Below are positions 15,528-29,394 of a stretch of 64,000 bases of DNA, in pieces. The stretch comes from Saccharibacillus brassicae (GTDB lineage Bacteria > Bacillota > Bacilli > Paenibacillales > Paenibacillaceae), in the NCBI RefSeq assembly GCF_006542275.1, contig NZ_CP041217.1, positions 3,970,501 through 4,034,500 of the forward strand, given 5' to 3'. A program made the position numbers and the translations under genes. Each line of letters begins with the position of its first letter. Position 1 is the first letter of the stretch. The notes beneath the pieces are model-generated. The model was not told where the DNA came from and made no database searches. It saw only the letters and a list, made by a program, of their open reading frames with translations.

Positions 15528-16457
15528 TTGGATAGGAAAAGAAAGGGAAATGCGGAAAGGGAGGAGGGGATTGCGATTCGGAAGGCGATCAAAAAAAGGC
15601 TGGAAGAACAGGTGGCCGGATTGAACGGCCGCGTGCATGACCTGCCCGGGGTCGGATCGGCCCTTGGCGGATTCGGCGCCGTCGTGACGTTCGGCGAAGA
15701 GATTCGCAAAAACGACTGGATCGGCTACCGGCGGATCGTCAAGGTCTGGCCGTATGCCGATGCGGCGTCGGGCGGCTTCGACAAGATCGAAGAACTGGCC
15801 GGCCGTATCGAAGCCGCGCTGCATGAAGCGGTTCTGCACAGCGAACCGGAAGCCGGAGCCGTAGGCGAAGCGCAAAGTTTCGCCTGTGTCTACGTCGGCT
15901 CTGCCGACGGGGACCGGGCGGACGCTCTGCTTGGCGGCCTGACGCGGGGCCTGCGCTTCGCCGTCTACCGGCAGCCGGCCGGTGTGCCGGCCGATGCGGG
16001 CCCGGCGGGCGCGGAACTGACCGCGCTTGCCAAGCTGTCGTCCGAGCTGCTCGGCTCGGACTGGCACGTGGCGGCCGATCGCTGGCCGAACGCCGTCAAG
16101 CGCCCGTGCGTGTTGTGGCGGCTCTCGGGCAGCCGCAAAGTGACGGCCAAGCCGTCGGCCTTCGACGTGCGGCGAACGTATGCCGCGCATGTGCTTGGCC
16201 GCGGGCCGGCGGAAGAGCGCGCAGCGCTCGAACGCTTGACGCAGCGCCTCAGCGGCGCGCAGCGCCTTGAGGCGTCCGCGCCGGGAACGCGCGGAGCGAC
16301 GATCGCGGACGTGGTCGCGGATCTGGAAGCGGACGGCTTCGTCAAAGGCCAACTGCGGCTTGACGTGCTGGAGCGCGCCGCCGCGGCGCCCGTTCGGCCG
16401 GGAGAGCCCGATCCGCCCGTTCGGATCGGGTACGTCGGCTTCAAGCAGGCGGACTGA
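15528..16457 (+). CDS. Tail terminator/completion-like protein, apparently two fused domains
   Basis: About 309 residues if started at TTG 15528. A strong purine-rich ribosome binding site lies at 15556-15569, after that TTG; the only downstream in-frame candidates are ATT codons at 15570 and 15576, so the real start is uncertain. The first half (IRKAIKKRLEEQVAGL ... FGEEIRKNDWIGYRRIVKVWPYAD) resembles short phage tail completion proteins. The second half (SSELLGSDWHVAADRWPNAVKRPCVLWRLSG) resembles tail terminator proteins, with the typical P-x-x-KRPC segment. It is the first gene of the tail cluster, in the place of PBSX XkdI/XkdJ. Family call is moderate. Confidence 0.6.
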   Translation: MDRKRKGNAEREEGIAIRKAIKKRLEEQVAGLNGRVHDLPGVGSALGGFGAVVTFGEEIRKNDWIGYRRIVKVWPYADAASGGFDKIEELAGRIEAALHEAVLHSEPEAGAVGEAQSFACVYVGSADGDRADALLGGLTRGLRFAVYRQPAGVPADAGPAGAELTALAKLSSELLGSDWHVAADRWPNAVKRPCVLWRLSGSRKVTAKPSAFDVRRTYAAHVLGRGPAEERAALERLTQRLSGAQRLEASAPGTRGATIADVVADLEADGFVKGQLRLDVLERAAAAPVRPGEPDPPVRIGYVGFKQAD

Positions 16458-16499
16458 AGGCCGCGCGGCGGGACACACTTGGATAAAGGCGGGATCGAC

Positions 16500-16733
16500 A
16501 TGCAGGAGACCCAACCCGGGACAAAGAGCCCGACACCGGCGGAAGCCGCAAGTGGCGGCAGCCGGCAGCCGGCCGAATATACGGCCGGCGAACTGGCGGA
16601 GCACGCGAACGAACTGTTCGGCGTGCGGGAAGAAGTGCTGCACGGCGCGCTGTGCCTGGACCCGGCGGAACGTTTTACCGTCGAGCAGGCCGCGCGGAAG
16701 ATCAAACAATTTATGAAAGCGAAGGTGAAGTAA
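16500..16733 (+). CDS. Small phage-tail-cluster protein upstream of the sheath gene
   Basis: A 77-residue protein starting at ATG 16500 (AAGGCGGG upstream); an upstream TTG at 16479 is possible but lacks a site. After a polar N-terminus it reads YTAGELAEHANELFGVREEVLHGAL then FTVEQAARKIKQFMKAKVK, a compact helical domain often found just upstream of the sheath gene in PBSX-like Paenibacillus elements. Its stop is 1 nt before the sheath start. Function unknown; probably a tail assembly accessory. Confidence 0.65.
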   Translation: MQETQPGTKSPTPAEAASGGSRQPAEYTAGELAEHANELFGVREEVLHGALCLDPAERFTVEQAARKIKQFMKAKVK

Positions 16734-16734
16734 T

Positions 16735-18192
16735 ATGGCAGGCGGAACTTGGAGTATGACGGAAAAACCGGTCCTTCCCGGATTGTATATGAATTTTCAG
16801 GCGGCGGCCGCTTCGGCGGTTCAGCCGGGCAGCCGCGGCACGGTCGCGGTTCTGGTCAAAAGCGACTGGGGCCCGGAACGCCAATTCGTCGAGATCGGCA
16901 GCGAGGCGGCGATCGACCGCATGTATTCGAACGACGGCACGAACGGTTCGACGGCCCGCGATTCGCTCTATCTGGCTCTGCTGGGCGGTCCGAAAAAACT
17001 GCTCGCTTACCGCATCGCCGACGATACGGCGGCAGCGGCTTCCCTGACGCTCAAGTCCGGCGAGAATGACGCGCTGCGCCTGACGGCCGTCCATACCGGC
17101 AGCCGGGCCAACGGATTCCGCGCAGCGGTGCAGCCGCGCGTCACCGACGGGAATACGCTCGAACTTCGCTTGTACGAAGGAGCCAAGCTGCTGCGCACGT
17201 TCGTGGCAGCGGACGGCAAAGCGTCGACGTTTGCGGCGGCGGTCAACGCGGACACCGGCAATCCCTGGATCAAAGCCGAAGCCGCGGCTCCGGAAGCGGT
17301 GCTGTCGGCCGTATCCGGTTCGGCCTTCGCCGGCGGCGCAAGCGGCAGCGGCGAGCTGAGCAACGCCGATTACGTCTCGGCGCAGTCGGCGCTCGAAGGG
17401 ACGGATTTCGATGTGCTGGCGCTCGATTTCGCTCCTGATGCGGCCCTGCTTCAAAGCTTCGCCGCGTTTATCAAACGTCTTCGCGGCGAAGGGCGCGGCG
17501 TGACGCTGGTGATCGGCGGCACGCAGGCGGAAGATACGGCCGCCAAAGCGCCGGAGATTGCGTCTGCCCGTTCGGCAGCCTTGAACCACGAAGGCATCGT
17601 CAATGTCGGCACGGGCGTCAAGCTCGGCAGCGCGGCGTACAGCTCGGCGCAGACGAGCGCTTACGTGGCCGGTCTGATTGCGGGCCAACGCCTGAACGAA
17701 TCGACGACGTACCATGCGGCGCCGTTTGATGACGTGACCCGCCGCTGGAGCCGTTCCGAACAGGAAACGGCGGTCAAGAACGGCGTGTTCCTGCTGTTCC
17801 ATGACGGCCGCCAGGTCAAAACGCTGCGCGGTATCAACACGCTGGTCGCGCCGGATGCGGGCCAGAACAACGCCTGGAAAAAAATCCGTTCCGTTCGCGT
17901 CATGGACGCGATCCGCAGCGACCTTCAGCGTACGGCCGAAGATTCGTACATCGGCAAAGTGAACAACACCGAAGAAGGGCGCCTGGCGCTGATCGGCGCG
18001 ATGAAAGAATATTTGGCGCTGCTCGCCCAAAGCGGCGTGATCGAAGCGGACGGCTTCGACGTCGTGCAGGACCCGGCTTACTACGGCGATGCGCCGCTGA
18101 TCAAGCCGGAAGCCGACCAGGTCTTCCTGCAGTGGAACGTGAAACTGTCCGACGTGATGGAGCAGCTGTTCGGCACGTTTTACGTGCAATAA
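16735..18192 (+). CDS. xkdK: Contractile tail sheath protein (XkdK-like)
   Basis: A 485-residue tail sheath protein. The N-terminus MAGGTWSMTEKPVLPGLYMNF matches PBSX XkdK (GTW at the start, P-G-x-Y-x-NF). The C-terminal part holds the conserved sheath assembly segment: TLVAPDAGQNNAWKKIRSVR and YIGKVNNTEEGRLALIGAMKEYL. The length is in the normal range for the family (about 440-490). It polymerises around the tube and contracts on receptor binding. GAAGGTGAAG is the ribosome binding site. The tube gene follows after 73 bp. Confidence 0.95.
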   Translation: MAGGTWSMTEKPVLPGLYMNFQAAAASAVQPGSRGTVAVLVKSDWGPERQFVEIGSEAAIDRMYSNDGTNGSTARDSLYLALLGGPKKLLAYRIADDTAAAASLTLKSGENDALRLTAVHTGSRANGFRAAVQPRVTDGNTLELRLYEGAKLLRTFVAADGKASTFAAAVNADTGNPWIKAEAAAPEAVLSAVSGSAFAGGASGSGELSNADYVSAQSALEGTDFDVLALDFAPDAALLQSFAAFIKRLRGEGRGVTLVIGGTQAEDTAAKAPEIASARSAALNHEGIVNVGTGVKLGSAAYSSAQTSAYVAGLIAGQRLNESTTYHAAPFDDVTRRWSRSEQETAVKNGVFLLFHDGRQVKTLRGINTLVAPDAGQNNAWKKIRSVRVMDAIRSDLQRTAEDSYIGKVNNTEEGRLALIGAMKEYLALLAQSGVIEADGFDVVQDPAYYGDAPLIKPEADQVFLQWNVKLSDVMEQLFGTFYVQ

Positions 18193-18265
18193 AGATTTTC
18201 CTATCGTCCGCCAAACAACCGACCGATCAAACTAAACGATTCAAGATCCCAAGGAGGAACAATCT

Positions 18266-18673
18266 ATGTTGGATGCTTCGAAAGTCATTCTCGGTACGTA
18301 CGGCCAACTGCACATCGACGGGGTGTGGCAGTCCCATATCAATAAGCTGGAAGCCAGCGTGGAGATCGAAAAGCGCGAACTCAACCTGACCGGCACCGAT
18401 TGGAAAGTCCACAAAAACGGGGCCAAAAAAGGCACCGGCACGATGAGCGGCTACAAAGTGACGTCGGACATGATCCGCCGCGGTTTCCGCAAGTTCGATA
18501 TCATCTCCAAGCTCGACGATCCGGAATCGTACGGCCATGAACGCGTGCGCCTGATCCGCTGCATGCCCGACAAGATCCAGCTTGCGAACTGGAATGCCGG
18601 CGAGGAAGTCGCGGAAGAAACAACGTTCACGTTCGAAGGCTACGAGCTGCTCGACCCAATTCGCGCGAACTGA
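18266..18673 (+). CDS. xkdM: Tail tube protein (XkdM-like)
   Basis: A 135-residue tube protein starting MLDASKVILGTYGQLHIDGVWQ and ending EVAEETTFTFEGYELLDPIRAN, characteristic of PBSX XkdM (DUF2001). It forms the inner rigid tube that the sheath drives through the target envelope. AAGGAGG at 18251-18257 gives a strong start. It sits directly after the sheath and before an intrinsic terminator, as expected for the most highly expressed pair. Confidence 0.94.
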   Translation: MLDASKVILGTYGQLHIDGVWQSHINKLEASVEIEKRELNLTGTDWKVHKNGAKKGTGTMSGYKVTSDMIRRGFRKFDIISKLDDPESYGHERVRLIRCMPDKIQLANWNAGEEVAEETTFTFEGYELLDPIRAN

Positions 18674-18704
18674 TTCTCATATCCGTTTTTCTGTATCGAA
18701 CACA

Positions 18705-18739
18705 GCCGCGGCACCGAAATCGGGCCGCGGCCGTTTTTT
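18705..18739 (+). terminator. Intrinsic terminator inside the tail operon
   Basis: GCCGCGGC (18705-18712) and GCCGCGGC (18724-18731) form an 8-bp GC-only stem with an 11-nt loop, followed by CG and six T. It lies between the tube gene and the chaperone gene, so it should lower expression of everything downstream. Confidence 0.75.
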
Positions 18740-18789
18740 GACCTTCTTTTAACCGTTTAACCATTCAATCATTCAAGGAGGAATTAGCA

Positions 18790-19224
18790 ATGAGCATCAA
18801 CGAAAACCTGTCCGAAGAACAAATCCTGGACGTGCTGTTCGAAGCCGCCGACAAACTGCCCGAAGAAACGGTGGCGATTCGCCGGCTCGATCTGCGCATG
18901 ACGCTGCGCGGCCTGACGTCGAGCAAAGTGGACGGCATTCGCGAGCGCTGCATGGTCCGCAAAACGGTCAAAGGCCGCACGGAGGAAAAAGTCGACAGCG
19001 AGACGTTCAATGCGCTGTTGATCTCGGAAGCGACGGCCAAGCTCGAAGTCAAAGGGCTGGAGCTGAACGGATGGGGCGATCCGCGGATCATCAGCCGCTT
19101 GAAGCTGTCCGGCGGAGAGCAGGCCGTGCGCCGGATGCTGCTGGCAGGCGAACTCGACGCGGTCGGCGACAAGGTCCTGGAGCTGTCCGGCTTCGGCGTG
19201 GAGCTCGCTGACGTAAAAAACTGA
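18790..19224 (+). CDS. xkdN: Tail assembly chaperone (XkdN-like, zero-frame product)
   Basis: A 144-residue protein, MSINENLSEEQILDVLFEAADKLPEETVAIRRLDLRMTLRGLTSSKV..., matching XkdN-type phage tail assembly chaperones (the gpG-like partner of the tape measure). AAGGAGG (18775-18781) precedes ATG 18790. It lies between tube and tape measure, the canonical position. Its last codons, GTA AAA AAC TGA, contain a perfect -1 slippery heptamer, so a longer fusion product is predicted. Confidence 0.9.
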   Translation: MSINENLSEEQILDVLFEAADKLPEETVAIRRLDLRMTLRGLTSSKVDGIRERCMVRKTVKGRTEEKVDSETFNALLISEATAKLEVKGLELNGWGDPRIISRLKLSGGEQAVRRMLLAGELDAVGDKVLELSGFGVELADVKN

Positions 19225-19376: not shown

Positions 19377-19406
19377 AGCTGCCTACAGATAAGAGGAGGT
19401 GAACCT

Positions 19407-21404
19407 ATGGCAGATCCGAACGGGTTTGCGATGAATGCCGGCGAACTCAAAGCAACCGCGCGCTACTTCGACCAGATCCAACGGGCCTCCGACCGGCTCG
19501 GCCGGACCCGGTACCAGAACATCGTCAAGTTGAATAACGAACTCAAATTTACGGCACGCTATTTCGACCAGATCTACCGAACCGCGCTCAAGCTGTCGAG
19601 GTTGAAGCTGATGCCCAAGGTAACGCTTGACGACAAAGCTTCCAGAGACATCGACCGGCTGCTGGCAAAACTCGGGCAGATTCGCTCGAAGCGCATTCAG
19701 GTGTCGGCGGATATGAAGATGCCCGCGGTTCCGGCCATGCCGAAAGTGCGGCAGAAGGTCGAAGCGCTGCCCCGGATTGCCCAAGCGGCTCCGGCCGTGC
19801 CGAAAGTGCCTCAGCGGGTCGAGCCGCTGCCGCCGATCGCTACAGGGGCTTCGAAAATAATCAAGGACAAGCCTATCGCGCCCAAACCCGATCTTGCGGC
19901 GCAAAAGCCGTCGATCGTGCAGCAGCAGCAAAGTCTGAAGCTTTCCATTATCAATCCCGCCCCGAGCTTTCCGCCGATCGATTTTCAGCCGCTGGTCACG
20001 GCGCTGACGATCAACACCGATGCGCTCGTGCAGTTGACGAGCAAGCTTGGGAACTTGCAGGTTGGTGCGGCTCCCGCGGCGGAGGAAAAGAAAAAAGGCG
20101 CGATTTCGATGCTTGTGGATGGTCTTAAAGCCGGTAAAACGTTAAACGATGGACGCCTGGACGTGCATAACGCCAGAGCTAAAAGCAGGGAAATTGCGGA
20201 TGAGGACAATAAAAGGCTTCAGGTGAATTCCGATCGGGCTTTGGACGATATGGCGAATCCTTCGCGAACGGCACAGGAAACAGCCGTTTTGGAAAGAGAA
20301 AGGAGAGAGGAAGACGAAGCCTATCGTATAAAAAGAAACACATTGAAAGCCGAAAGAACAGGGCACCGTCTTGGTGCCGGTATCAATCTCATAGAAGGCG
20401 GGACTGCGTCTGCCGATTTTTTAAAAGATTTTTACGGCGCTCTAACCGGTTCCGGAGGAGGAGAAGCTAAATCCAGTCCTGCCGAGGCGGCTTCCCAACT
20501 CATTCAAGGTGTCAATGACTCCGGTATTTTGGACACTTTCGGCAAAGGAGTAGCCAAAAAGATTTTCGGCCCGCTCGGTACGCTGTTGGAAGTCGGAGAT
20601 GCCATACGTACGACCGATGATCGGGCGAGATTCGAAATGTTGGGAGGCGCTGCCGGAGGAGCCATCGGCGGGAGCGCCGGTGCAGCGATCGGAACGGCTG
20701 TTTTACCCGGGCTGGGCACCGCCGTCGGCGGTTATCTGGGCGGAATGGCCGGAGATTTTGTCGGCGAAAAAGTGGGCGGCCTGGTCTACGAATATGGCGG
20801 TAAAGCTGCCGAATTCATGGATAGTACGATGGATAAGTTATCAAGCAAAATGGACGAACTGTTCAGTTGGGGCAAAAAAGAACAAGAAAAGCCCGCGCCG
20901 AAACCGTCTGCGCCGCTTTCTCCCACGCTTGCCCAGGCGGCCGGCATTCCGTCTCCGGCGATGTACGGTCCCATGCGCGATCCTGCGCCTCCGCGTTTTG
21001 CCGATCCGATGGATCCGATCGCGATGATGAACCAGCGGCTCATCAGTCAGGCTGCGCCTAAGGTTCTGCCTCCGGCCGTACCGCCGCAGCCGGCTGCGCC
21101 GCCTGCGGGCATCGCCGGCGCCAACGCCGCCGGAAGCGGCAGTCAGATCAGCGTCGAGATGAGCCAGACGCAGATGGGCGCCCTCTCCGGCATGATCCAG
21201 GAAGCGAAGACCGAAGTGACCAACCAGGTCTCGATCAATATCTCGCCGGGCACCGTGCAGTTGGATATTCACGAAGAGATCGACTACGCGGAGATCGAAG
21301 GCAAGATCGGCGCCGCGATCGTCGCGAAAGTGCGGCAGGCGTTCAATAACTACAAACCGACGGGCGGCGGTTCGGGCGGACCTTCGACGGCGATGGCGAC
21401 GTAA
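19407..21404 (+). CDS. Short tail tape measure protein (XkdO-like)
   Basis: A 665-residue protein with AAGAGGAGGTG upstream of ATG 19407. N-terminal region (about 1-150) is helical and basic; a Pro/Ala-rich part follows; about 330-460 contains Gly/Ala-rich hydrophobic helices (GGAAGGAIGGSAGAAIGTAVLPGLGTAVGG, then GYLGGMAGDFVGEKVGG), typical of tape measure membrane-active segments. The C-terminus (about 560-665) is an oligomerisation-like region. PBSX XkdO is roughly twice this length, so the tail should be short. A middle stretch near 20.1-20.55 kb is visibly more AT-rich than the rest. Confidence 0.85.
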   Translation: MADPNGFAMNAGELKATARYFDQIQRASDRLGRTRYQNIVKLNNELKFTARYFDQIYRTALKLSRLKLMPKVTLDDKASRDIDRLLAKLGQIRSKRIQVSADMKMPAVPAMPKVRQKVEALPRIAQAAPAVPKVPQRVEPLPPIATGASKIIKDKPIAPKPDLAAQKPSIVQQQQSLKLSIINPAPSFPPIDFQPLVTALTINTDALVQLTSKLGNLQVGAAPAAEEKKKGAISMLVDGLKAGKTLNDGRLDVHNARAKSREIADEDNKRLQVNSDRALDDMANPSRTAQETAVLERERREEDEAYRIKRNTLKAERTGHRLGAGINLIEGGTASADFLKDFYGALTGSGGGEAKSSPAEAASQLIQGVNDSGILDTFGKGVAKKIFGPLGTLLEVGDAIRTTDDRARFEMLGGAAGGAIGGSAGAAIGTAVLPGLGTAVGGYLGGMAGDFVGEKVGGLVYEYGGKAAEFMDSTMDKLSSKMDELFSWGKKEQEKPAPKPSAPLSPTLAQAAGIPSPAMYGPMRDPAPPRFADPMDPIAMMNQRLISQAAPKVLPPAVPPQPAAPPAGIAGANAAGSGSQISVEMSQTQMGALSGMIQEAKTEVTNQVSINISPGTVQLDIHEEIDYAEIEGKIGAAIVAKVRQAFNNYKPTGGGSGGPSTAMAT

Positions 21405-21436
21405 CGATTCAAGCAGGCCCGGAAAGGAGGAAAGCC

Positions 21437-22063
21437 GTGGATATTTATTTGTTTTACGGATACAAAAAAAATTTTCGTTTTCCCGTCAATCCCGAAGAGA
21501 TCCATTTCTCGCGCTCCAAAGGTTACGAAACGGTTAATATGCTTCAGCATGGGGAATTCGATTTTGCGCAGGGAGACAAGATCAAGGAGATCACGTTTTC
21601 GTCTTTTTTTCCGAAAAAATACGATCCTTCCTACTGCCGATTCAGCAAAATCCCCGACCCGATGGCCGCAGTGAACGTGCTGAACCGGTTTCTCGTCTCG
21701 GCCGAACCGGTCCGCCTGGTCATCTCGCATACCGGCATCAACGTGCCTGTGTACCTGATCTCGTATAACAGTTCGTTCCGGGGCGGCGAGCCGGGCGATA
21801 TTTATTTCGAGCTGACGTTCCGCACGTGGCGGGATGCCAAGCTTCAGGGCGAAGGCGGCACGGCGATAAAAGCGAGCCGAAGCGATCTCCGAACCGCCAG
21901 CAAAACCTATACCGTCAAAAGCGGCGATTCGCTGCACAAAATTGCCAAGCTGGAGCTCGGTTCCGGCGAAAAATGGCAGCTGATCTACGCGGCCAACAAA
22001 AGCGTGATCGGCAGCAATCCGAATGTGATCAAGCCGGGCCAGAGGTTGGTGATGCCGTCGTGA
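21437..22063 (+). CDS. xkdP: Baseplate hub-associated LysM protein (XkdP-like)
   Basis: A 208-residue protein started by GTG 21437 with AAAGGAGG 7 nt upstream. The N-terminal domain includes FRFPVNPEEIHFSRSKGYETVNML and GEFDFAQGDKIKEITFSSFFPK, typical of XkdP. The C-terminal LysM domain (about 160-208) reads TYTVKSGDSLHKIAKLELG...NPNVIKPGQRLVMPS. LysM binds peptidoglycan and in contractile tails joins the tape measure to the hub. The stop overlaps the next start (GTGA). Confidence 0.93.
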   Translation: MDIYLFYGYKKNFRFPVNPEEIHFSRSKGYETVNMLQHGEFDFAQGDKIKEITFSSFFPKKYDPSYCRFSKIPDPMAAVNVLNRFLVSAEPVRLVISHTGINVPVYLISYNSSFRGGEPGDIYFELTFRTWRDAKLQGEGGTAIKASRSDLRTASKTYTVKSGDSLHKIAKLELGSGEKWQLIYAANKSVIGSNPNVIKPGQRLVMPS

Positions 22064-23043
22064 GCTATCACGTCATTGTGGGCGGCAGCGCCGATCTGAC
22101 GCCGATGGTCGAAAGCATCAGCATGCGCGACGCGCTCGATCAAATCGCTTACCAAGCCCATATTCGTCTGGCGGTCTCGAATGCGCGGCAGCTGCCGGAC
22201 TTGACGCCCGGAACGGCTATTCGCGTCAGCGGCGTGCCTTATGGCAAAGAGGAGAGTGTGCCGCTGCTGAATCCCGGCGTCATCTGGGACGCGGAAAGCA
22301 CCAACAGCGGCACCAAACGCATTTCGCTCACCGTGTACGACCGGATGATCTATCTGGAGAAATCCGAAGACGAATATCTGTTTCTCAAAGACCAGACGGC
22401 GACGCAGCGCTTGAGCAAATACGCCAAAGACTGGAAGATCAAGCTGGCTGACGAGACGGACACCGAAATCAAGTTGGGCAAAGCGGTATACCGGGCGCAG
22501 ACGATCTTTTCGATGCTGTTCGCGGATCTCAAAGAAACGGCCAAATCCGGCGGCGCGATGTACCATCCCCGAATGACGGGCCGCGGGCTGGAGCTGTTCA
22601 AGCTTGGCAGCAACGCGCAGGTGCATGAGCTGGATCGCCTGATCGACGTGGCCCAGATGCGTACGCTGGAAGGTGCGGTGACCAAAGTCAAAGTGCTGGC
22701 CGCCGCGGACTCTTCCAACGGAAAAGAAGTGAAGTCCAAAATTCTGACCGTCGACGAAAAAGGCACGGACAAACTGGGAACGCTGCAAAAAGTCGTCTCG
22801 GACGATCAGGTCAAAACGGCAAAAGCGGCCAAAAAGCTTGCGGCCAGTTATCTCACCGGCATTCAGGAGACGTTTACGGTGACCGCGCCCGACGTGAACA
22901 CGATTCGGGCCGGAGACGCGGTCACGTTGAGCGGCATGAAGCTGTTGGTCACGTCGGCCGGTCACGATCTCGGGAATCCGGGCACGATGACGCTGGAGCT
23001 GGCGACCGAAGCGGCCGTAAAAAGGAGGTATTACCTTGACTAA
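22060..23043 (+). CDS. xkdQ: Baseplate hub protein (XkdQ-like)
   Basis: A 327-residue protein, the same length class as PBSX XkdQ. Start at GTG 22060 (VSYHVIVGG) overlaps the XkdP stop; a longer frame upstream is not supported. Visible family features are ISLTVYDRMIYLEKSEDEYLF and YHPRMTGRGLELFKLG, then a C-terminal part with KAAKKLAASYLTGIQETFTVTAPDVN and IRAGDAVTLSGMKLLVTSAGHDL. The fold class is that of gpD/gp27-type hub proteins on which the spike and baseplate assemble. Confidence 0.92.
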   Translation: MSYHVIVGGSADLTPMVESISMRDALDQIAYQAHIRLAVSNARQLPDLTPGTAIRVSGVPYGKEESVPLLNPGVIWDAESTNSGTKRISLTVYDRMIYLEKSEDEYLFLKDQTATQRLSKYAKDWKIKLADETDTEIKLGKAVYRAQTIFSMLFADLKETAKSGGAMYHPRMTGRGLELFKLGSNAQVHELDRLIDVAQMRTLEGAVTKVKVLAAADSSNGKEVKSKILTVDEKGTDKLGTLQKVVSDDQVKTAKAAKKLAASYLTGIQETFTVTAPDVNTIRAGDAVTLSGMKLLVTSAGHDLGNPGTMTLELATEAAVKRRYYLD

Positions 23044-23305
23044 AGATCCGTATGGACAATTCGCCGATATGATGAGTTCCGCAATGAAAGGACATACCCG
23101 GCAGATGGCGAGCGGACTCGGCGGCGTGCTGGGCACGGTCACTTCTTCGGGTCTCAAACTGGACGATTTCAAGCATGAGATCCGCGATTACATGACGGCG
23201 GAACTGCCGGTCGGGCTGCTGCCCGGCGACCGCGTGCTGGCGATCCGGATCAACGGCGGCAGCGACATCGTCGTGCTCTGCAAGGTGGTGGGCGCGGATG
23301 GCTAA
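23036..23305 (+). CDS. xkdR: Baseplate/spike small protein (XkdR, DUF2577-like)
   Basis: An 89-residue protein begun by TTG 23036, 6 nt after AAAGGAGGT (23021-23029). The sequence ends ELPVGLLPGDRVLAIRINGGSDIVVLCKVV, the small beta-domain of DUF2577 (XkdR). It overlaps XkdQ by 8 bp and XkdS by 8 bp, showing tight coupling of baseplate genes. Likely associated with the central spike or hub. Confidence 0.88.
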   Translation: MTKDPYGQFADMMSSAMKGHTRQMASGLGGVLGTVTSSGLKLDDFKHEIRDYMTAELPVGLLPGDRVLAIRINGGSDIVVLCKVVGADG

Positions 23306-23765
23306 TCTTTTTCCGGAACATGACGGCTTCTTCTGGGGAGACGAAACGGCGGCGGCCGAAGCGGAAACGGCTGCGATCGCGTTCGGCCGGGGCTGGAAAT
23401 TCGATTACGGCGCAGGCGAATTTGTCGTGACGCCCGGCGGCCGGATCGCGTCAGCCGACGCGCGCGAAGCCTGGGTGCAGTGGTGCGAAAAAGCGATCCG
23501 GACTCCGCGCTACCGCCACGTCATCTATTCGAGCGATTATGGAAGCGAGTTGGAAGACCTGATCGGCAGCGGATACGCGCACGCCGTTGTAGAGAGCGAA
23601 ATCGAACGCATGGTGACGGAAGCGCTGCTGGCGGATCGTCGCACCGGCTCCGTAGACCGGTTTTCTTTTGCCTGGGACGGGGACCGCTGCACGCTGACCT
23701 GTTACGTCACCAGCGTACAGGAAGACGTCGAAATTTTGGAAAGCGAGGTGATGGGCATTGGCTGA
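23298..23765 (+). CDS. xkdS: Baseplate wedge / sheath initiator (XkdS, DUF2634, gp25-like)
   Basis: A 155-residue protein with a W-x-FDYGAGEFVVTPGGRI segment and AWVQWCEKAIRTPRYRHVIYSSDYGSELEDLIG, the signature of the DUF2634/gp25-like group that starts sheath polymerisation on the baseplate. ATG 23298 has AAGGTGG upstream. It overlaps both neighbours by 8 bp. Confidence 0.92.
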   Translation: MANLFPEHDGFFWGDETAAAEAETAAIAFGRGWKFDYGAGEFVVTPGGRIASADAREAWVQWCEKAIRTPRYRHVIYSSDYGSELEDLIGSGYAHAVVESEIERMVTEALLADRRTGSVDRFSFAWDGDRCTLTCYVTSVQEDVEILESEVMGIG

Positions 23766-24897
23766 TTTTCCTTATTATTTGCAAGGACAGACGGAAGAAG
23801 CGATCCGGCGGCGCATGCTGGATCGGCTGCCTGCGGATCTGGATAAATCGGAAGGGTCTTTTCTGTGGGATACGCAGGCCCCGGCGGCTTTTATGCTGTC
23901 GGAAGCGGCTTCGTGGGCCCAGGAGCTGCTGCGGCGCGGGTTCGTCAGCACGGCGGCCAGTACGGACGACAATTTTCGCTCGGACGAACTGGACCTGCGC
24001 GCGGCGGAACACGGCGTGACGCGTCGCGGCGCGACTTTTGCGGAAGGTACGGCCACGTTTACGGGCGAACCGGGCCGACTCGTGCCGGCCGGCACGACGG
24101 TCTCGTCGCTCTCGGACGACGGTTCCGGCGAAGCTGCCAAAGAATACGAAACGTTGGCTGCGGTCACGCTGAGCGAAAGCGGCAAAGGCTCCGCGCCGAT
24201 CCGTGCCCTGCTTGCGGGCAAAGCGGGCAATATCCCGCCGGGCGCGATTACGCTGCTGTCCGATTCGGTTGCCGGCGTGACGGGAGTTACGAATGCGGCG
24301 GCTGCGACCGGAGGAAGCAATATCGAATCGGACGTTTCGCTGCTGGAACGCTTTTACGCCAAAGTTCGCAATCAGGGCACCAGCGGCAACAAATCGCAGT
24401 ACATGCAGTGGGCCGGCGAGATTCCGGGCGTGGGCGCAAGCCGGGTTCTTCCGCTGTGGAAAGGGCCCGGCACGGTGGCCGTCTATTTGCTCGACAACGA
24501 CAAGCGGGCCGCCGGCGCCTCGATCGTATCGAAAGTGCAGGATTATATCGATCCGACGCAGGACGGGCAGGGCGAAGGGATGGCTCCGGCCGGGCCGGTC
24601 GTCACGGTTATGCCGGCGGAGGAAGTGCCGATTCATATCGAAGTGACGCCGACGCTCGCAAGCGGAGCGTCCGCGGCGGACGTCAAAGCGCAGATTCAGG
24701 CCGGCGTCGCGTCTTACCTCAAACAGCTTGCTTTTCGCGATCCGCTTGTCCGGTACACCCGCATTGCGGCGATCCTGCTCGATATTCCGCCGCTGATCGA
24801 TTACGCGCAGCTGACGGTAAACGGTACGAGCGAGCGCAATATCGAGATCAAAGAGCATCAGGTGGCGGTTCCGGGGACGGTGACGGTGCATGGATAA
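23758..24897 (+). CDS. xkdT: Baseplate J-like protein (XkdT)
   Basis: A 379-residue baseplate J (gp6-like) wedge protein. TTG 23758 start (MADFPYYLQGQTEEAIRRRMLDRLP) with GAGGTG upstream. Family features are EGSFLWDTQAPAAFMLSEAA, a beta-rich middle, GTSGNKSQYMQWAGEIPGVGASRVLPLWKGPGTVAVYLLD (about 202-240), and a C-terminus with YTRIAAILLDIPPLIDYAQLTVNG. It overlaps XkdU by 8 bp. Confidence 0.94.
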   Translation: MADFPYYLQGQTEEAIRRRMLDRLPADLDKSEGSFLWDTQAPAAFMLSEAASWAQELLRRGFVSTAASTDDNFRSDELDLRAAEHGVTRRGATFAEGTATFTGEPGRLVPAGTTVSSLSDDGSGEAAKEYETLAAVTLSESGKGSAPIRALLAGKAGNIPPGAITLLSDSVAGVTGVTNAAAATGGSNIESDVSLLERFYAKVRNQGTSGNKSQYMQWAGEIPGVGASRVLPLWKGPGTVAVYLLDNDKRAAGASIVSKVQDYIDPTQDGQGEGMAPAGPVVTVMPAEEVPIHIEVTPTLASGASAADVKAQIQAGVASYLKQLAFRDPLVRYTRIAAILLDIPPLIDYAQLTVNGTSERNIEIKEHQVAVPGTVTVHG

Positions 24898-25519
24898 TGC
24901 CGTAAACGAAGCTTCGGGCAGCTTGGCTGCGCAGGCCGCCGCTCGGGATCAAGAGCTTCCCCTTTCCTCGAAAGGGCGGGAGCTTTTTTCCTATTTGCCT
25001 CATTATTACGAGACTTCGCGCATCATGCGGGCGGACGCCGAGACAAAAGGTCGCGAGATGGATCTGCTCTACGCCGCGCTGAACGAGACGCTGGATCAAT
25101 TTTTCGTGCGGACGGCGACCTGGGGACTGGATATTTGGGAACGGGAGCTGGACATCGCGTTCGACCCGGACAAGCCGCTCGATCAGCGCCGTTCGGTCGT
25201 GGAGTCGAAGCTGCGTGGCGGCGGCGTGTTCTCCGGGAGCATGGTACGGAACGTGGCGGCGGCGTACGACCAGGGCGAAGTCTCGGTCCGCTTCAAGCCC
25301 GAACAGTGGTCGTTTACGATCACTTTCGTCGGAACGCGCGGTCTGCCTCCGAACCTGGACGACCTGAAAGCGGCGATCGAAGCGATCAAGCCAGCGCATC
25401 TGGCGGTGGAGTATGCGTTTACGTATCTGCGGTGGGACGAACTCGATGCGAAAAATATCACTTGGGATCGATTCGACACGCTTCAAAAAAATTGGGATGA
25501 ACTGGAGGTCTGGAAATAA
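24890..25519 (+). CDS. xkdU: Tail baseplate protein (XkdU, DUF2313, gpI-like)
   Basis: A 209-residue protein of the DUF2313/YmfQ group. Typical parts are LFSYLPHYYETSRIMRADAETKGREMDLL, ATWGLDIWERELDIAFDPDKPLDQRRSVVESKLRGGG and FVGTRGLPPNLDDLKAAIEAIKPAHLAVEYAFTYLRW. It links the baseplate wedge to the tail fibres. Its stop overlaps the fibre gene start (TAATG). Confidence 0.93.
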   Translation: MDNAVNEASGSLAAQAAARDQELPLSSKGRELFSYLPHYYETSRIMRADAETKGREMDLLYAALNETLDQFFVRTATWGLDIWERELDIAFDPDKPLDQRRSVVESKLRGGGVFSGSMVRNVAAAYDQGEVSVRFKPEQWSFTITFVGTRGLPPNLDDLKAAIEAIKPAHLAVEYAFTYLRWDELDAKNITWDRFDTLQKNWDELEVWK

Positions 25520-27132
25520 TGCCGGAACAAACAACGAATTTGAACCTGCCGATTCCGCTTGGAAACGAGAATGTGAATCGGCAGTTTTTTCTCGACCTGA
25601 TTCAGGCGGTCGACAAGGGCGCGGTCTCGGAGCGACAGCTGACAGAAGCGATCGGCAAGGTCGCGATTGCTTTGACGCAGGATTATGCCAGCACGGATCA
25701 AGCGACGGCCATTTCCGCCGACGCGGTTCGGCGCGGCCTGGAGACGAAACAGAATACCGTTCGTCTGGCCGACAATTACTTGGCGGCTTCGGCTTTGATC
25801 AATGCGGCGCCGGACGCGCAGAACCGGGCCTACCCGGACAGTTTCTCGTTCTTCAAAGTCAGCAGCGCCGCGGGCGGCTGGCCGACCTCGAACGGCTACG
25901 TCATGACGATGCGCGCCGGCAGCGGCGGCGTCCAGCTGTATTTCGAGATGTACATGGGCAATGTACAGAGCGAGAAGACGGCCCGGATCTGGACGCGTTC
26001 GAAGCGGGATGCGAACGGGTTTTGGCAGGAGTGGAATCGGACATTGACGGAAGCGGATCGGGCGCTGCTTACGACGTGGTCGAACAGCGTGGCGGACACG
26101 CGTATGACGAATGCCGCACCGAATACGTATGCGCAGGGCGTGACAAGAGAATTTAAAGTCGGGTCTGCAATCGGCTTGCCGGGCGAAGCGTGGGTGCTGC
26201 TCACTACAGAAAAGCCATGGGTAGATGTAGCTGGAGGATTGCCTTTCCAATTTGCCAACGGCGGCACAACGGGGCTTCTCTACTACCGTACGTCTAATGG
26301 GACGACGGAGAGTGCCGGATGGGCGTCGTGGATTGATTTAGTGGCAGATGTGAGATTGGAAAAGATCTCGTCAATCGAACTCCGGCGACAAGTACCGGGA
26401 GATGGTCCTGCTTTTATTGATTTCCACACGTCGGCTGAAGGAGTTGATTTTAACGCGAGAATTATTGCTGAAAATACTTCTACGAAAGGGAACGGGCAGG
26501 GAAGGTTAACGTTAAGCGCACAGGGTGGGATCTACGCCGATGGTCCGCTTTTCGTGCAAGGTACAGACCTAAAAAAATCTGTCAGTGATGGCAAAGCCGC
26601 CGTCCGCGCTGCGATCACTGGAAAAGGCGGCACGGTAGCGGACGCGGACGGAGACGGTGTTCCTACGCACGTAGAACTTGCGGCGGGCGTAAATAGCATT
26701 GTTCGAAGCATGGCAGGAGTTGTTCGGGTAGTCGGTAACACCTCAAGTTTAGCCTCGACTTTGGGTGCTGAAATGGCGGTAGCGAGTTTCCCTGCTGGAT
26801 TACAGTCACATATTTCCTTCTTCCCTACAAGGTTAGATTCGGGAAACGGCAGCTACGCCATGCAGTATGACCCGTCGCAAGTCGATTTAAGAATAACCGA
26901 TGGCGTTAATGTGATTCATATCGCTGCTCCTCCTGGGTATGGCGGCTTCATAACTATTGCCTTTGACTTCGGTTTAGGTGTGGCCACTATCGTTTCTGAC
27001 CAAAATAACAAAATAAGAACCGGAATCGGCGTTTTGAACCGGAATCTTCCGCTTCGCATCTACCTATACCGAAAAGCAACTAACGGCACCACAGTGTACT
27101 GCGGATTATGGACTGACATATTCTACGGATAA
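25519..27132 (+). CDS. Tail fibre with pyocin-knob domains (receptor-binding candidate)
   Basis: A 537-residue protein. N-terminal attachment region (about 1-80) starts MPEQTTNLNLPIPLGNENVNRQF. Two knob-like units follow: about 85-180 (SFSFFKVSSAAGGWPTSNGY ... ARIWTRSKRDANGFWQEWNR) and about 195-275 (REFKVGSAIGLPGEAWVLLTTEK ... GWASWIDL). These match the pyocin knob domain of R- and F-type bacteriocin and phage fibres. The C-terminal half (about 290-537) is beta-rich and unrecognised, with an aromatic end TVYCGLWTDIFYG. From about 26.16 kb onward base composition turns more AT-rich, consistent with a swapped receptor-binding tip. Confidence 0.85.
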   Translation: MPEQTTNLNLPIPLGNENVNRQFFLDLIQAVDKGAVSERQLTEAIGKVAIALTQDYASTDQATAISADAVRRGLETKQNTVRLADNYLAASALINAAPDAQNRAYPDSFSFFKVSSAAGGWPTSNGYVMTMRAGSGGVQLYFEMYMGNVQSEKTARIWTRSKRDANGFWQEWNRTLTEADRALLTTWSNSVADTRMTNAAPNTYAQGVTREFKVGSAIGLPGEAWVLLTTEKPWVDVAGGLPFQFANGGTTGLLYYRTSNGTTESAGWASWIDLVADVRLEKISSIELRRQVPGDGPAFIDFHTSAEGVDFNARIIAENTSTKGNGQGRLTLSAQGGIYADGPLFVQGTDLKKSVSDGKAAVRAAITGKGGTVADADGDGVPTHVELAAGVNSIVRSMAGVVRVVGNTSSLASTLGAEMAVASFPAGLQSHISFFPTRLDSGNGSYAMQYDPSQVDLRITDGVNVIHIAAPPGYGGFITIAFDFGLGVATIVSDQNNKIRTGIGVLNRNLPLRIYLYRKATNGTTVYCGLWTDIFYG

Positions 27133-27146
27133 CGGGGGAACGACTT

Positions 27147-27512
27147 ATGAGCGTTTATCTGACTTACGGACAAAGAAACAATGAACGCGCTAAAATTACT
27201 AATCGGTATATGAATCCGTTTGGCGGACTCAAAGAAATGGAGCCGGACGGATTCCATGTTGAGAGAGTGCCAGAGCCGGAGACACCGGAGGGACTTGATC
27301 CGGTTCTGATGGTCAAGTTCCCAGCAGAGGGAAGCACGGCGGAACCAGAACTCTATTACGATTACGTCGCGATCCCGGAGCCGGAAGAGACGCAGCTCGC
27401 AAAGCTCCAACAACAGCTTGATACGTTAACTGCGAAAGCTTCGGCGCTCTCAAGCGGACAAGAAATACAGGAAGACGTTATTACGGAGATTGTGATGCAC
27501 GTCTACAAATAG
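27147..27512 (+). CDS. Fibre-associated small protein, candidate chaperone
   Basis: A 121-residue acidic protein directly after the fibre gene (14-bp gap): MSVYLTYGQRNNERAKITNR..., with a Pro/Glu-rich middle (VPEPETPEG), a QLAKLQQQLDTLTAKASALS coiled-coil segment near 88-107 and a C-terminus ending IVMHVYK. The position is that of fibre assembly chaperones in phages and tailocins; the sequence itself is not recognised. It shares the AT-richer composition of the fibre tip, suggesting they moved together. Ribosome binding site is weak (GGGGGAA). Confidence 0.62.
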   Translation: MSVYLTYGQRNNERAKITNRYMNPFGGLKEMEPDGFHVERVPEPETPEGLDPVLMVKFPAEGSTAEPELYYDYVAIPEPEETQLAKLQQQLDTLTAKASALSSGQEIQEDVITEIVMHVYK

Positions 27513-27565
27513 TTCTCGCGTCCTGCTTGGGTTTTGTATTTGATGCAGGGGGAGGTGGACAAGAG

Positions 27566-27697
27566 ATGTTGGCTGTGATGCTCGCAAACCGCATTATTAT
27601 CGGCAAACTGGAATACAAGACTGTTCCGGAATCGCTGAAACTGTCGGTCAAAGAACAATTGGAAAACGCAGGCGCAGGCTTCCTCGCCGCCGACTAA
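27566..27697 (+). CDS. XkdX/CD1375-like small phage protein (43 residues)
   Basis: ATG 27566 is preceded by GGAGGTGG with about 8-nt spacing and the frame ends TAA 27695-27697. The product MLAVMLANRIIIGKLEYKTV ends SVKEQLENAGAGFLAAD. Small proteins of this pattern (hydrophobic start, x-x-G-K-x-x-x-E/D-x-VP, short helix) sit between fibre and holin genes in PBSX-like elements. Function unknown. Confidence 0.7.
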   Translation: MLAVMLANRIIIGKLEYKTVPESLKLSVKEQLENAGAGFLAAD

Positions 27698-27751
27698 ACC
27701 GCTCCGCCTCGGGAGCGGTTATTTCTACGCCCCCGGAACCGATCCGGGGGC
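27697..27751 (+). terminator. Tandem hairpins between fibre and lysis modules
   Basis: Two perfect 9-bp stems lie end to end: AACCGCTCC/GGAGCGGTT (27697-27720, loop 6) and GCCCCCGGA/TCCGGGGGC (27729-27751, loop 5). T-tracts after them are weak, so termination is probably partial; they may also stabilise the upstream mRNA. Confidence 0.65.
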
Positions 27752-27789
27752 TCATTTCAAATTCATTTTGTACAAACGGGAGCATGCCT

Positions 27790-28296
27790 ATGGGGAATAT
27801 GGGGGAGCACATCATAAAGGGAACGGCCGCGGCCGTGGGGGCCGTGGTCGGCTGCCTATTGGGAGGGTTGAACGTGATGGTCACATTGCTGCTGGTACTT
27901 ATCATCGTGGATTGGGCAACAGGATTGGCGGCGGCGTGGGTGCGCGGGGAACTGCGCAGCCGGGTGGGGTATTTCGGGATCGTCCGCAAGGCCGCGATCT
28001 TCGTCGTGGTGGCCGTGGCGCATCTGGTCGACCAGGCTCTCGGCGATCTGCATATGTTTCGCGATGCGGTGATCTTTTTCTATCTGGCCAATGAATTGTT
28101 GAGCGTCATCGAAAACGTCGGCAAAATGGGCGTGCCGATGCCGCCGATTCTGCGCGATGCCGTCCGCATCTTCGAGAGCCGGACCAAGCCGGAAGAAAAT
28201 CCGCAGCTGATCCCGGAAGCCCAGCCGGAAATCGTCAAAGCCGACAAAGCCGAAGAGAACGCCGCGGCCGAAGCCGAAGAGAACAAAACGGCCTGA
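27790..28296 (+). CDS. Phage holin (TcdE/Phage_holin_4-type)
   Basis: About 168 residues. In-frame ATGs lie at 27784, 27790 and 27799; GGGAG at 27778-27782 fits 27790 best (7-nt spacing). Hydrophobic segments at about residues 10-50 and 70-90 include GTAAAVGAVVGCLLGGLNVMVTLLLVLIIVDWATGL and RKAAIFVVVAVAHLVDQAL, the IIVDWATG and RKAAIF motifs being typical of the toxin-secretion/phage-lysis holin family. The last 50 residues are an acidic Ala/Glu-rich cytoplasmic tail. It precedes the amidase, forming the lysis cassette that would free assembled particles. Confidence 0.88.
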   Translation: MGNMGEHIIKGTAAAVGAVVGCLLGGLNVMVTLLLVLIIVDWATGLAAAWVRGELRSRVGYFGIVRKAAIFVVVAVAHLVDQALGDLHMFRDAVIFFYLANELLSVIENVGKMGVPMPPILRDAVRIFESRTKPEENPQLIPEAQPEIVKADKAEENAAAEAEENKTA

Positions 28297-28335
28297 CCGA
28301 CAGCGGATACAAATCGAACGCAAGGAGGGAATGTT

Positions 28336-29394
28336 TTGCAAGCGAATAAATATCCGATCGAGCGCCGCTACATCGCCAAGCGTTCGAACACGAGACCCGG
28401 CCTCCGGCTGACTACCGGAACGCCGGCTTTTTTTGTTGCGCACGACACGGGCAATCCGGGCGCGGGCGCGGAGAGCCATTACCGTTACTTCAACGCGCTG
28501 ACGGACCGTTCCGCTTCGGCGCATACGTTTATCGACGACACAAAGATTCTCGAGATCATCCCCGCCGGAACGGACACAGACCCTGCCGAAAAAGCGTGGC
28601 ATGTCCTCTACAACGTCAAAGCGGACAACGAACGTTTCGGTTACGATGCCAACGATGCCGCGCTGGGCGTGGAACTATGCTACGGAGGGCGCATCGATTT
28701 CGAAGAAGCGTACAAGCGTTTCGTCTGGTACCTGGCATTCTGCTGCAAAAAATGGAACAAAGACCCGCGCCTGTTCATTCCGAGCCATAAACAGCTGGAC
28801 CCGGCGCGGAAAATCGACTGCGACAACGCGCTGAGGTCCGGCGGCCGAACGCTCAAAGAGCTGATTGCCGACGTGACGGCGGAACTTGCGCAGCCCGCGA
28901 ACCGACCGCCGGGCGGGCAGGGCGCGGACGCATCGGCGGGAGCCGGAGCCGCGGGCGGCGCTTATGTTCCGCCCGCTCCTTCCGGCGCGAACGGCGGTTC
29001 TTCGCCGAGTCCTCCCGGCGCGGACGGCTCCGTTTCGAAGCCGGCTCGGCCGGCCCCGGACTTCGCTCCGCTGGACGCCGATCTTGCGCAGGCGCTGATC
29101 GCCGATTACGTCCGTCCCGCCTGGGCCGCCGCGCGCGCCGCGCAGCAGGTGCCGGAAGCGGAACATTTTCACCGGCTGGCCGAGAACCTGCGTGCTGCCG
29201 CGGGCATCGACGAGCGGGGCGCGAAGCTGCCGCAGGCAGTCAAGCTGCACAAGTCCAATGTGCAGGAACTGGTCTTCCGCTGGCTGTCGCCTGCCTGGTA
29301 CCGGGCCAAAGCGACAGGCGATTCCGCTTCGGCGTCCGCCGCTCACGAACAAGCCAACGCCCTGCGCCTGGCCGCGGGGCTTCCGAAGCAGTAA
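28336..29394 (+). CDS. N-acetylmuramoyl-L-alanine amidase (endolysin)
   Basis: A 352-residue protein begun by TTG 28336, 6 nt after AAGGAGGG. The amidase_2/PGRP-like catalytic domain spans about 20-185: FFVAHDTGNPGAGAESHYRYF supplies the first zinc His, SASAHTFIDDTKILEIIP the core strand, and IPSHKQLDPARKIDCDN the later His and Cys/Asp ligands. A Pro/Gly/Ala-rich linker (about 190-235) joins an unrecognised helical C-terminal domain (about 240-352). It would cleave the cell wall so that holin-dependent lysis can occur. Followed by an intrinsic terminator closing the cluster. Confidence 0.9.
   Translation: MQANKYPIERRYIAKRSNTRPGLRLTTGTPAFFVAHDTGNPGAGAESHYRYFNALTDRSASAHTFIDDTKILEIIPAGTDTDPAEKAWHVLYNVKADNERFGYDANDAALGVELCYGGRIDFEEAYKRFVWYLAFCCKKWNKDPRLFIPSHKQLDPARKIDCDNALRSGGRTLKELIADVTAELAQPANRPPGGQGADASAGAGAAGGAYVPPAPSGANGGSSPSPPGADGSVSKPARPAPDFAPLDADLAQALIADYVRPAWAAARAAQQVPEAEHFHRLAENLRAAAGIDERGAKLPQAVKLHKSNVQELVFRWLSPAWYRAKATGDSASASAAHEQANALRLAAGLPKQ

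What the first reader, a model, noticed from the sequence alone, without database searches (positions are those of the whole stretch)
15528..29394. A complete contractile tail and lysis module without head genes: candidate R-type tailocin
Seen: terminator, sheath, tube, chaperone, tape measure, XkdP-XkdU baseplate, pyocin-knob fibre, holin and amidase in PBSX order, closed by a terminator. Not seen anywhere in 64 kb: terminase, portal, protease, capsid or integrase. Known: PBSX still encodes head genes, whereas R-type tailocins consist only of tail plus lysis genes. Inference: this is a chromosomally fixed phage-tail-like bacteriocin used against related bacteria. The 665-residue tape measure, at the usual about 0.15 nm per residue, predicts a tail near 100 nm.
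Basis: partly seen in the sequence, partly recalled or inferred. Interest (0 to 1): 0.85.

Follow-up and report, generated by a model that had tools for sequence, protein, structure and literature searches.

The report
Headless phage-tail weapon in Paenibacillus relatives
A soil and plant bacterium carries, at a chromosome site shared by its genus, a complete spring-loaded phage tail with lysis genes and its own switch but no phage head, most likely a weapon against other bacteria; close relatives hold this tail, a different one, or only the lysis part.

Summary
Window 15528-29394 encodes a complete contractile tail, terminator to fibre, plus holin and amidase, with no head gene beside it. The chromosome matches Saccharibacillus brassicae ATSA2T in length.

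Relatives in Saccharibacillus, Paenibacillus, Fontibacillus and Cohnella keep the same tail order. At the genus site, 8 of 16 genomes carry this tail (A), 3 another contractile tail (B), 5 none; those five keep holin, four of them amidase, and the switch is present in the four read that far. G002, and weakly G007, retain the start of the A terminator gene. Of 80 named loci, 21 also hold a B sheath.

Best reading: a domesticated PBSX-derived R-type tailocin with interchangeable, dispensable tails. Induction, particles and killing are inferred. Against simplicity, the chromosome also has a separate head-bearing island without this promoter. The 'pyocin knob' was not confirmed.

The parts
11205..11618 (-). 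immA: ImmA/IrrE-type metallopeptidase with HELGH motif, predicted anti-repressor
   Evidence: Pfam PF06114 1.7e-20; found in all 14 other genus genomes read to this point
11677..12084 (-). immR: HTH (Cro/CI-type) repressor
   Evidence: Pfam PF13560 3.8e-17, PF01381 8.6e-15; 75-94% identity in the same 14 genomes
12085..12390 (.). divergent control region: TTGCC-N4-GGCAA-like palindromes, some imperfect (candidate ImmR operators), and direct repeat GAAC-N7-GAAC at 12304-12322
   Evidence: alignment of 15 genomes; the direct repeat, up to 1 mismatch allowed, occurs once per genome in 16 of 16 genus genomes; reversed pattern once in 2 of 16
12391..12894 (+). arpU: ArpU-family sigma-like late activator (Xpf-like role)
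15287..15304 (+). late promoter motif GTAAGATTATATCATCGG
15361..15396 (+). terminator-like hairpin followed by a T-rich tract in the 5' leader of the tail operon
   Evidence: folding of the leaders of 11 type A or tail-less genomes, no shuffle control run
15528..16457 (+). tail terminator (gp53-like); start codon uncertain
   Evidence: PDB 9gb5_H E 1.1e-12; phrog_2146 3e-32
16479..16733 (+). small tail-operon protein of unknown role (84 aa)
   Evidence: phrog_1939 1.5e-15; found in most loci
16735..18192 (+). contractile sheath (XkdK)
   Evidence: PF04984, PF17482; PDB matches
18266..18673 (+). tail tube (XkdM)
   Evidence: PF09393 3.1e-47
18790..19224 (+). tail assembly chaperone (XkdN)
   Evidence: PF08890 2.3e-22
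19407..21404 (+). tape measure, 665 aa
   Evidence: position; PHROGs tape-measure family 1.2e-10 among others; fast-evolving
21437..22063 (+). LysM baseplate/tail protein (XkdP)
   Evidence: PF01476 7.6e-7; phrog_380 2.3e-65
22054..23043 (+). baseplate hub protein (XkdQ/YqbQ)
   Evidence: PF24032 5.9e-25; phrog_400 4.1e-52
23036..23305 (+). XkdR-position protein
   Evidence: phrog_2403 5.4e-21
23298..23765 (+). sheath initiator (XkdS, gp25-like)
   Evidence: PF10934 1.4e-36
23758..24897 (+). baseplate J (XkdT)
   Evidence: PF04865 1.4e-62
24890..25519 (+). Mu gp48-like baseplate wedge (XkdU)
   Evidence: PF10076 2.9e-31
25519..27132 (+). tail fibre, N-terminal anchor shared with some relatives and exchangeable C-terminal modules
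   Evidence: alignment A3 of 9; 33% identity to G015 where tube is 98%
27147..27512 (+). fibre-associated small protein
   Evidence: phrog_3834 3.8e-5
27527..27697 (+). CD1375-like small protein
   Evidence: PF23792 6.4e-5, below its cut-off
27784..28296 (+). holin
   Evidence: PF05105 4.3e-38
28336..29394 (+). endolysin, N-acetylmuramoyl-L-alanine amidase
   Evidence: PF01510 2.9e-11
29443..29477 (+). intrinsic terminator closing the operon
   Evidence: 14-pair hairpin and T run

Best explanation
The locus is a domesticated, PBSX-derived R-type tailocin. In resting cells ImmR represses arpU. After DNA damage the metallopeptidase ImmA is expected to inactivate ImmR (inferred from ImmR/ImmA elements, recalled). 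ArpU, a sigma-region-4-like activator, then switches on one late promoter at 15287-15304. That promoter drives terminator, sheath, tube, tape measure, baseplate and fibre, and finally holin and amidase, so the cell makes headless contractile tails and bursts. The tails bind related Gram-positive cells through the variable fibre, contract and depolarise them (inferred). The tail block is an exchangeable and dispensable cassette between a constant promoter and a constant holin end.
For: Complete tail and lysis set. The operon starts at the tail terminator. In the 23 named loci with a close ArpU, the ArpU match ends 391-1,481 nt before it. Core order holds in 79 of 80 named loci for the genes found; the exception is two hits fused in one frame; 67 of 80 carry all 11 core genes scored. 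Purifying selection, with dS in the range of flanking genes except a higher terminator value (G000 against G015). Tube 98% and chaperone 99% identical but fibre 33% in that pair. One promoter motif per genome in 15 of 16 genus genomes; in 49 of 295 family genomes, one or two each. Motif within 2 mismatches in 21 of 23 loci with close ArpU, 0 of 6 with distant ArpU, 31 of 49 with no ArpU match in the flank; reverse-strand control 0 of 78. ImmA/ImmR matches.
Against: No particle, induction or killing is shown. Tails are missing in the nearest relatives (G008, G002) and replaced in others, so the trait is not needed everywhere. A head-bearing island exists in the same chromosome. The ImmA/ImmR step rests on family resemblance. 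LexA-type palindromes: 11 in the window against 6.0 expected (4 of 100 shuffles reach 11); two lie near immA/immR (11190, 11775) but none in the arpU-immR interval. In Saccharibacillus proper a sigma gene, an anti-sigma-position gene and rpmE lie between arpU and the tail operon, and about 10 kb of host-like genes in G021 of the P. amylolyticus group, so the link is in trans. The sigma-fold match is middling. Against G013 the omega values are weaker: terminator 0.32, small gene 0.72, xkdP-xkdS saturated.
Confidence: 0.82

Rival explanations
1. A decayed prophage: PBSX-like phage that lost its head genes and is now drifting.
For: Tails absent in 5 of 16 genus genomes, with a remnant of the terminator gene in G002 and a weak 58-bp match in G007; several relatives have split or short frames, for example L037, L042, L057, L063, L065, L073.
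Against: In the window all core genes are open, and between tail-bearing genomes they are conserved (omega 0.02-0.20 for ten genes, G000 against G015); the head block is missing in all 23 loci with a close ArpU in view, which recent decay would not give.
Confidence: 0.07
2. A tail module that serves a head made elsewhere, for example by the head-bearing island at 0.53-0.55 Mb of this chromosome (satellite-like division of labour).
For: Island with portal, terminase, SU10-like capsid, weakly scaffold-like protein and integrases, no tail match among 11 ORFs scanned.
Against: PF05133 portal found in G000 only of 16 genus genomes while 8 have the same tails; 6 of those 8 match none of the six head families searched; the late promoter has one match in the genome, at the tail locus; capsid type unlike PBSX (recalled).
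Confidence: 0.03
3. An extracellular contractile injection system delivering a protein cargo rather than a pore-forming tailocin.
For: Headless contractile tail, chromosomal, variable fibre.
Against: No AAA ATPase or cargo-like match among the operon ORFs scanned; lysis cassette, LysM protein and phage-type control genes.
Confidence: 0.03
4. The selected function is programmed lysis (release of vesicles, enzymes or DNA, or altruistic death) and the tails are an optional load.
For: In the 5 tail-less genomes holin is kept in 5, amidase in 4, the promoter in 4 (not G012), and immA, immR, arpU in the 4 read that far; these genes show omega 0.03-0.18 in the two tail-less/tail-bearing pairs tested, G000-G008 and G015-G005.
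Against: Half the genus and the 80 named relatives keep tails (these were found by a tail gene, so the sample is biased); G012 is losing promoter and amidase too, so tail loss may be the first step of decay.
Confidence: 0.05

Closest known systems
Diffocins of Clostridioides difficile
   Same: R-type tail of a Gram-positive host, 25-gene cluster, SOS-formed, released by lysis (PMC6088184, passages); sheath relation to CD1363, E 2.4e-23; CD1375-like small protein (sub-threshold)
   Different: Sheath longer (485 against 354 aa); ArpU/ImmR switch and the A/B/none exchange described here; no killing shown here
PBSX of Bacillus subtilis
   Same: Tail families and order XkdK to XkdU, then holin and amidase (order recalled); a sigma-like factor Xpf (PMC4243946, passages); repressor and ImmA-like gene recalled
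   Different: PBSX packages about 13 kb of host DNA (PMC4243946, passages) and has head genes; here none is in the locus
R/F pyocins of Pseudomonas aeruginosa (recalled)
   Same: Fixed site, shared regulation and lysis cassette, tail types kept singly or in tandem
   Different: Unrelated regulators; here both tail types are contractile
PBSX-like tail particles of Brevibacillus laterosporus (PMC9406221, abstract and outline seen)
   Same: XkdK-type sheath particle with antibacterial activity in a Gram-positive spore former
   Different: Compared there with defective prophages; the abstract describes no family-wide headless locus or promoter
R-type tailocin prophages of solventogenic clostridia (PMC10538166, passages)
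   Same: Gram-positive R-type tailocins; the review mentions loci that keep only induced lysis
   Different: Those keep the full structural gene set and integrases; the review sees capsid retention as a Gram-positive trait

Membership tests
R-type tailocin | Complete contractile tail: terminator, sheath, tube, tape measure, baseplate, fibre | tested here: met
   tape measure and fibre by position and weak or variable matches
R-type tailocin | No head, packaging or integration genes in the locus | tested here: met
   plausible ORFs of 15.5-31.2 kb and of 11.2-14.9 kb scanned; ArpU-to-terminator gap 391-1,481 nt in 23 named loci
R-type tailocin | No co-regulated head genes elsewhere in the genome | tested here: inconclusive
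   late promoter motif occurs once, but a head-bearing island exists in G000 and its expression is unknown
R-type tailocin | Lysis cassette in the operon | tested here: met
   holin and amidase
R-type tailocin | Variable receptor-binding fibre on a conserved core | tested here: met
   fibre 33% against tube 98%; modular alignment
R-type tailocin | SOS-type induction, headless particles, killing of related strains | not testable with these tools
   needs the bench
PBSX-like defective prophage | Head and packaging genes that package host DNA | tested here: not met
   none in the locus; PF04466 in 0 of 16 genus genomes while the control B. subtilis rings
Diffocin | Sequence relation of sheath to CD1363 | tested here: met
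   E 2.4e-23 over residues 282-441: distant relation only
eCIS (Afp/PVC-like) | AAA ATPase and cargo genes in the cluster | tested here: not met
   no such match among the operon ORFs scanned
R-pyocin fibre | Knob domain in the fibre | tested here: inconclusive
   no sequence match, model too poor to search
ArpU/Xpf-type late activators | Sigma-like DNA-binding fold and cognate promoter | tested here: inconclusive

The most novel reading that the evidence does not exclude
The unit kept by selection is an inducible lysis switch (ImmR/ImmA, ArpU, one promoter, holin, lysin) into which two distantly related contractile tails are loaded singly, in tandem or not at all. The ancestor of Saccharibacillus and its Paenibacillus relatives carried both tails, and lineages repeatedly dropped A, B or both, leaving working suicide cassettes in tail-less strains.
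Probability: 0.3. Interest if true: 0.75.

Novelty: new variant of a known kind. Interest (0 to 1): 0.6.

Why it matters
A 2023 review (PMC10538166, passages seen) names diffocins as the only widely recognised Gram-positive R-type tailocins and treats retained capsid genes as an emerging Gram-positive trait. This locus is a headless counter-case with relatives over several genera of soil and plant bacteria. Its single late promoter gives a testable regulon, and the A, B, A+B and tail-less versions make it possible to ask what selection keeps: the weapon or the lysis.

Tried and rejected
Pyocin-knob claim: fibre against Pfam, NCBIfam and PDB, then as alignment A3, gave nothing convincing; its AlphaFold model had mean pLDDT 35.9 and I ran no fold search with it.

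LexA box: palindromic pattern in the window gave 11 against 6.0 expected, 4 of 100 shuffles reaching it, none in the arpU-immR interval. The conserved site there is a direct repeat instead; I do not know what binds it.

Promoter scan of 14-31 kb: 7 found, 5.9 expected; terminator scan 21 against 23.8. Single sites from it count only with conservation.

Head genes: PF03354, PF04466 and PF05065 matched 0 of 16 genus genomes, yet G000 does have a terminase of another family. A negative family search is therefore not proof. I did not search the SU10-capsid family over the genus.

Flanks: for 49 of the 78 named loci scored no ArpU match was in the fetched flank, so there the absence of head genes further upstream was not read. 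In G062, G021, G149 and G180 the extra upstream DNA showed host-like genes by eye; for G039 only family matches were printed.

Tail-less genomes: I did not test whether they carry non-contractile (F-type) tails. G002 is split between contigs there, so its tail-less state rests (no baseplate match).

HD-gene tree: labels A/B/none need at least 6 changes; 49 of 200 shuffles need as few, so the labels show little clustering by descent. Differential loss and horizontal replacement cannot be separated with these data.

Literature: 10 searches of open PMC papers. In the rows listed (not all rows were shown) I saw no title or abstract start reporting a Paenibacillus or Saccharibacillus tailocin locus of this kind. 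Subscription papers and bioRxiv are not covered.
Full report
WHAT IS THERE. The window is bases 3970501-4034500 of a single 5,619,468-bp contig. That length is exactly the chromosome length published for Saccharibacillus brassicae ATSA2T (PMC9867790, passages seen). The passages found there do not mention this locus. Between 15528 and 29394 lie the genes of a contractile phage tail in PBSX order followed by holin and amidase, each with a family match or a conserved position. The first gene is the tail terminator, by its match to phiCD508 gp53. In phiCD508 the neck runs gp50 adaptor, gp51 valve, gp53 terminator (PMC11948020, passages), so this operon begins on the tail side of the head-tail joint. 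The sheath family has one match in the chromosome.

On the minus strand lie ImmA (11205-11618) and ImmR (11677-12084), with Pfam Peptidase_M78 and HTH matches. Facing them is a 167-aa ArpU-family gene (12391-12894; TIGR01637). The interval between them holds palindromes of the form TTGCC-N4-GGCAA, some imperfect, and a direct repeat at 12304-12322, seen in all 15 genomes aligned. The direct repeat, with up to one mismatch, occurs exactly once per genome in 16 of 16 genus genomes; the reversed pattern occurs once in 2 of 16.

ONE PROMOTER. Comparing the DNA before the tail operon in relatives showed a strong common motif. GTAAGATTRTATYATCGG with up to one mismatch occurs once in 15 of 16 genus genomes, always at this locus as read, and not in G012; the reversed pattern hits once, in G004. 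Without mismatch it occurs in 49 of 295 family genomes, 15 of them the genus, one or two copies each; the reversed pattern hits in 3 of 295. In the 80 named loci a related pattern, plus strand, gave 46 hits, and all 46 lie 144-460 nt before the terminator start (46 of the 76 loci with a terminator match). Allowing two mismatches, 21 of 23 loci with a close ArpU (55% or more) have it, 0 of 6 with a distant one, and 31 of 49 with no ArpU match in the flank; 78 of 80 loci were scored, and the reverse-strand control was 0. Promoter and ArpU type thus go together, which points to ArpU as the factor that reads it, although shared descent alone could also give this. The ArpU model resembles sigma region 4, at a middling Z. 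In 11 type A or tail-less leaders a terminator-like hairpin follows the promoter; type B leaders showed no matching one.

RELATIVES, HEADLESS. A genome scan found 108 relatives of the baseplate J protein; I hold the best 80, from Saccharibacillus, Paenibacillus, Fontibacillus and Cohnella. Among the genes found, core order is kept in 79 of 80, the exception being two hits fused in one frame. 67 of 80 have all 11 core genes scored (tape measure, fibre and lysis genes not counted), 9 lack only the small 84-aa gene by this search, L044, L079 and L098 are cut by contig ends, and L096 shows neither terminator nor small gene. Several loci have split or short frames (for example L037, L042, L057, L063, L065, L073). 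The ArpU match ends 391-1,481 nt before the terminator in all 23 loci with a close ArpU, so the head block that PBSX has there (recalled) is missing. In the window the gap is 2.6 kb, filled by an ECF sigma gene, a membrane protein and rpmE. The tails evolve under constraint: G000 against G015 gives omega 0.03 for tube, 0.02 for chaperone, 0.09 for sheath, 0.11 for baseplate J, 0.37 for the small gene; fibre and tape measure are saturated. Against G013 the terminator gives 0.32, the small gene 0.72, and xkdP-xkdS are saturated.

SAME SITE, CHANGING LOAD. I read the site in 15 genus relatives. With the window, 8 of 16 carry type A, 3 (G003, G006, G011) carry a different contractile tail B (sheath 28-29% identical), and 5 (G002, G005, G007, G008, G012) have no tail match there. 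The 14 read to that point keep immA, immR and arpU; holin is in all 16; amidase of the window type is in 9 of 16; G003 and G062 have another ORF there that looks lysozyme-like by eye, not scanned. G008, G005 and G007 keep promoter and leader upstream of holin, with 0.6-1.5 kb of other DNA or small ORFs between rpmE and holin; G012 keeps only a degenerate promoter. G002 retains promoter, leader and about 48 codons of the A terminator gene, and G007 a weak 58-bp match to it (75.9%, E 3.7e-5), so tail loss came by deletion in G002 and probably G007. On a tree of the downstream HD gene, A and B are sisters twice (G004/G006, G009/G003), and A is sister to tail-less genomes twice (G015/G005, G000/G002+G008), each at 100 ultrafast bootstrap; at least 6 changes are needed. 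Of the 80 named loci, 21 also hold a type B sheath (over 50% identical to G003) in the same locus, as do 35 of 80 IMG/VR stretches. G062 shows one promoter-motif match, A, B and one holin match, and G275 and G304 have A followed by B as far as fetched. An ancestor with both tails, pared down differently, is the simplest reading, but replacement by recombination is not excluded.

HEAD GENES ELSEWHERE. The chromosome has an island at about 530-549 kb with integrases, portal, large terminase, SU10-like capsid and a weakly scaffold-like protein, and no tail-specific match among the 11 ORFs scanned, which are not all its ORFs. By coordinates it is 3.45 Mb away (2.2 Mb the other way round the circle). 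Its portal family is found in G000 only of 16, and the late promoter's single match in the genome is at the tail locus. Across six head families, G000, G001 and G011 match at least one; 6 of the 8 type A genomes match none. G011's terminase lies about 15 kb from a second, distinct baseplate gene on the same contig, as expected of an ordinary prophage.

HOW IT LIKELY WORKS. Shown by sequence: gene content, order, site, conservation, promoter motif. Inferred from families: ImmA relieves ImmR after DNA damage, ArpU activates the promoter, tails assemble without heads, holin and amidase burst the cell. Inferred from R-type tailocins in general: fibre binding, contraction, membrane depolarisation. 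The target range is unknown.

WHAT IS NEW. R-type tailocins are known, and lysis-only remnants and PBSX-like particles have been mentioned (PMC10538166 passages; PMC9406221 abstract). I saw no report of this headless Paenibacillaceae locus in the rows of the ten searches named under Tried and rejected. New here are the widespread headless locus, its promoter motif tracking the ArpU type, and the A, B, A+B or none exchange.

Noticed in passing
G000:C1:529953-548952 (outside the window; loci L248, L249): Head-bearing island: integrases, portal, large terminase, SU10-like capsid, weakly scaffold-like protein and, by eye only, a transposase; no tail match among 11 ORFs scanned; could be a capsid-forming satellite or a prophage remnant.
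   Followed up: partly
12304-12322: Direct repeat GAAC-N7-GAAC just after the likely arpU promoter, once per genome in 16 of 16 genus genomes; binder unknown, not the usual Gram-positive SOS palindrome (recalled).
   Followed up: partly
12994-14899: An ECF sigma gene, a membrane protein in anti-sigma position and rpmE (L31, minus strand) sit between arpU and the tail operon in Saccharibacillus proper, but were not matched there in the six genomes of the G001/G004/G009 and G003/G006/G011 group.
   Followed up: partly
L261 (G021), L262 (G149), L263 (G180): In the P. amylolyticus group a second copy of the late promoter lies directly before a host-like gene of about 600 aa (MKTVLYVPLDDRPANLDD...), 2-4 kb upstream of the tails; possibly a co-regulated host gene.
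   Followed up: no
15361-15396: Terminator-like hairpin in the leader of the tail operon, seen in 11 type A or tail-less genomes, no matching one in 3 type B genomes (no shuffle control); attenuation or antitermination is possible.
   Followed up: partly
G013 region (L222, L223): Baseplate genes xkdP-xkdS are only 48-62% identical to the window while sheath, tube and chaperone are 84-99%: the baseplate block looks exchanged.
   Followed up: no
IMG/VR loci L112-L191: IMG/VR lists such tail loci as viral contigs: 220 stretches encode a relative of the baseplate protein, best 80 held; I did not check those contigs for head genes.
   Followed up: no
G012 region (L228): Most decayed form: tail genes gone, ECF sigma matched only in pieces, no amidase match, promoter beyond one mismatch.
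   Followed up: no
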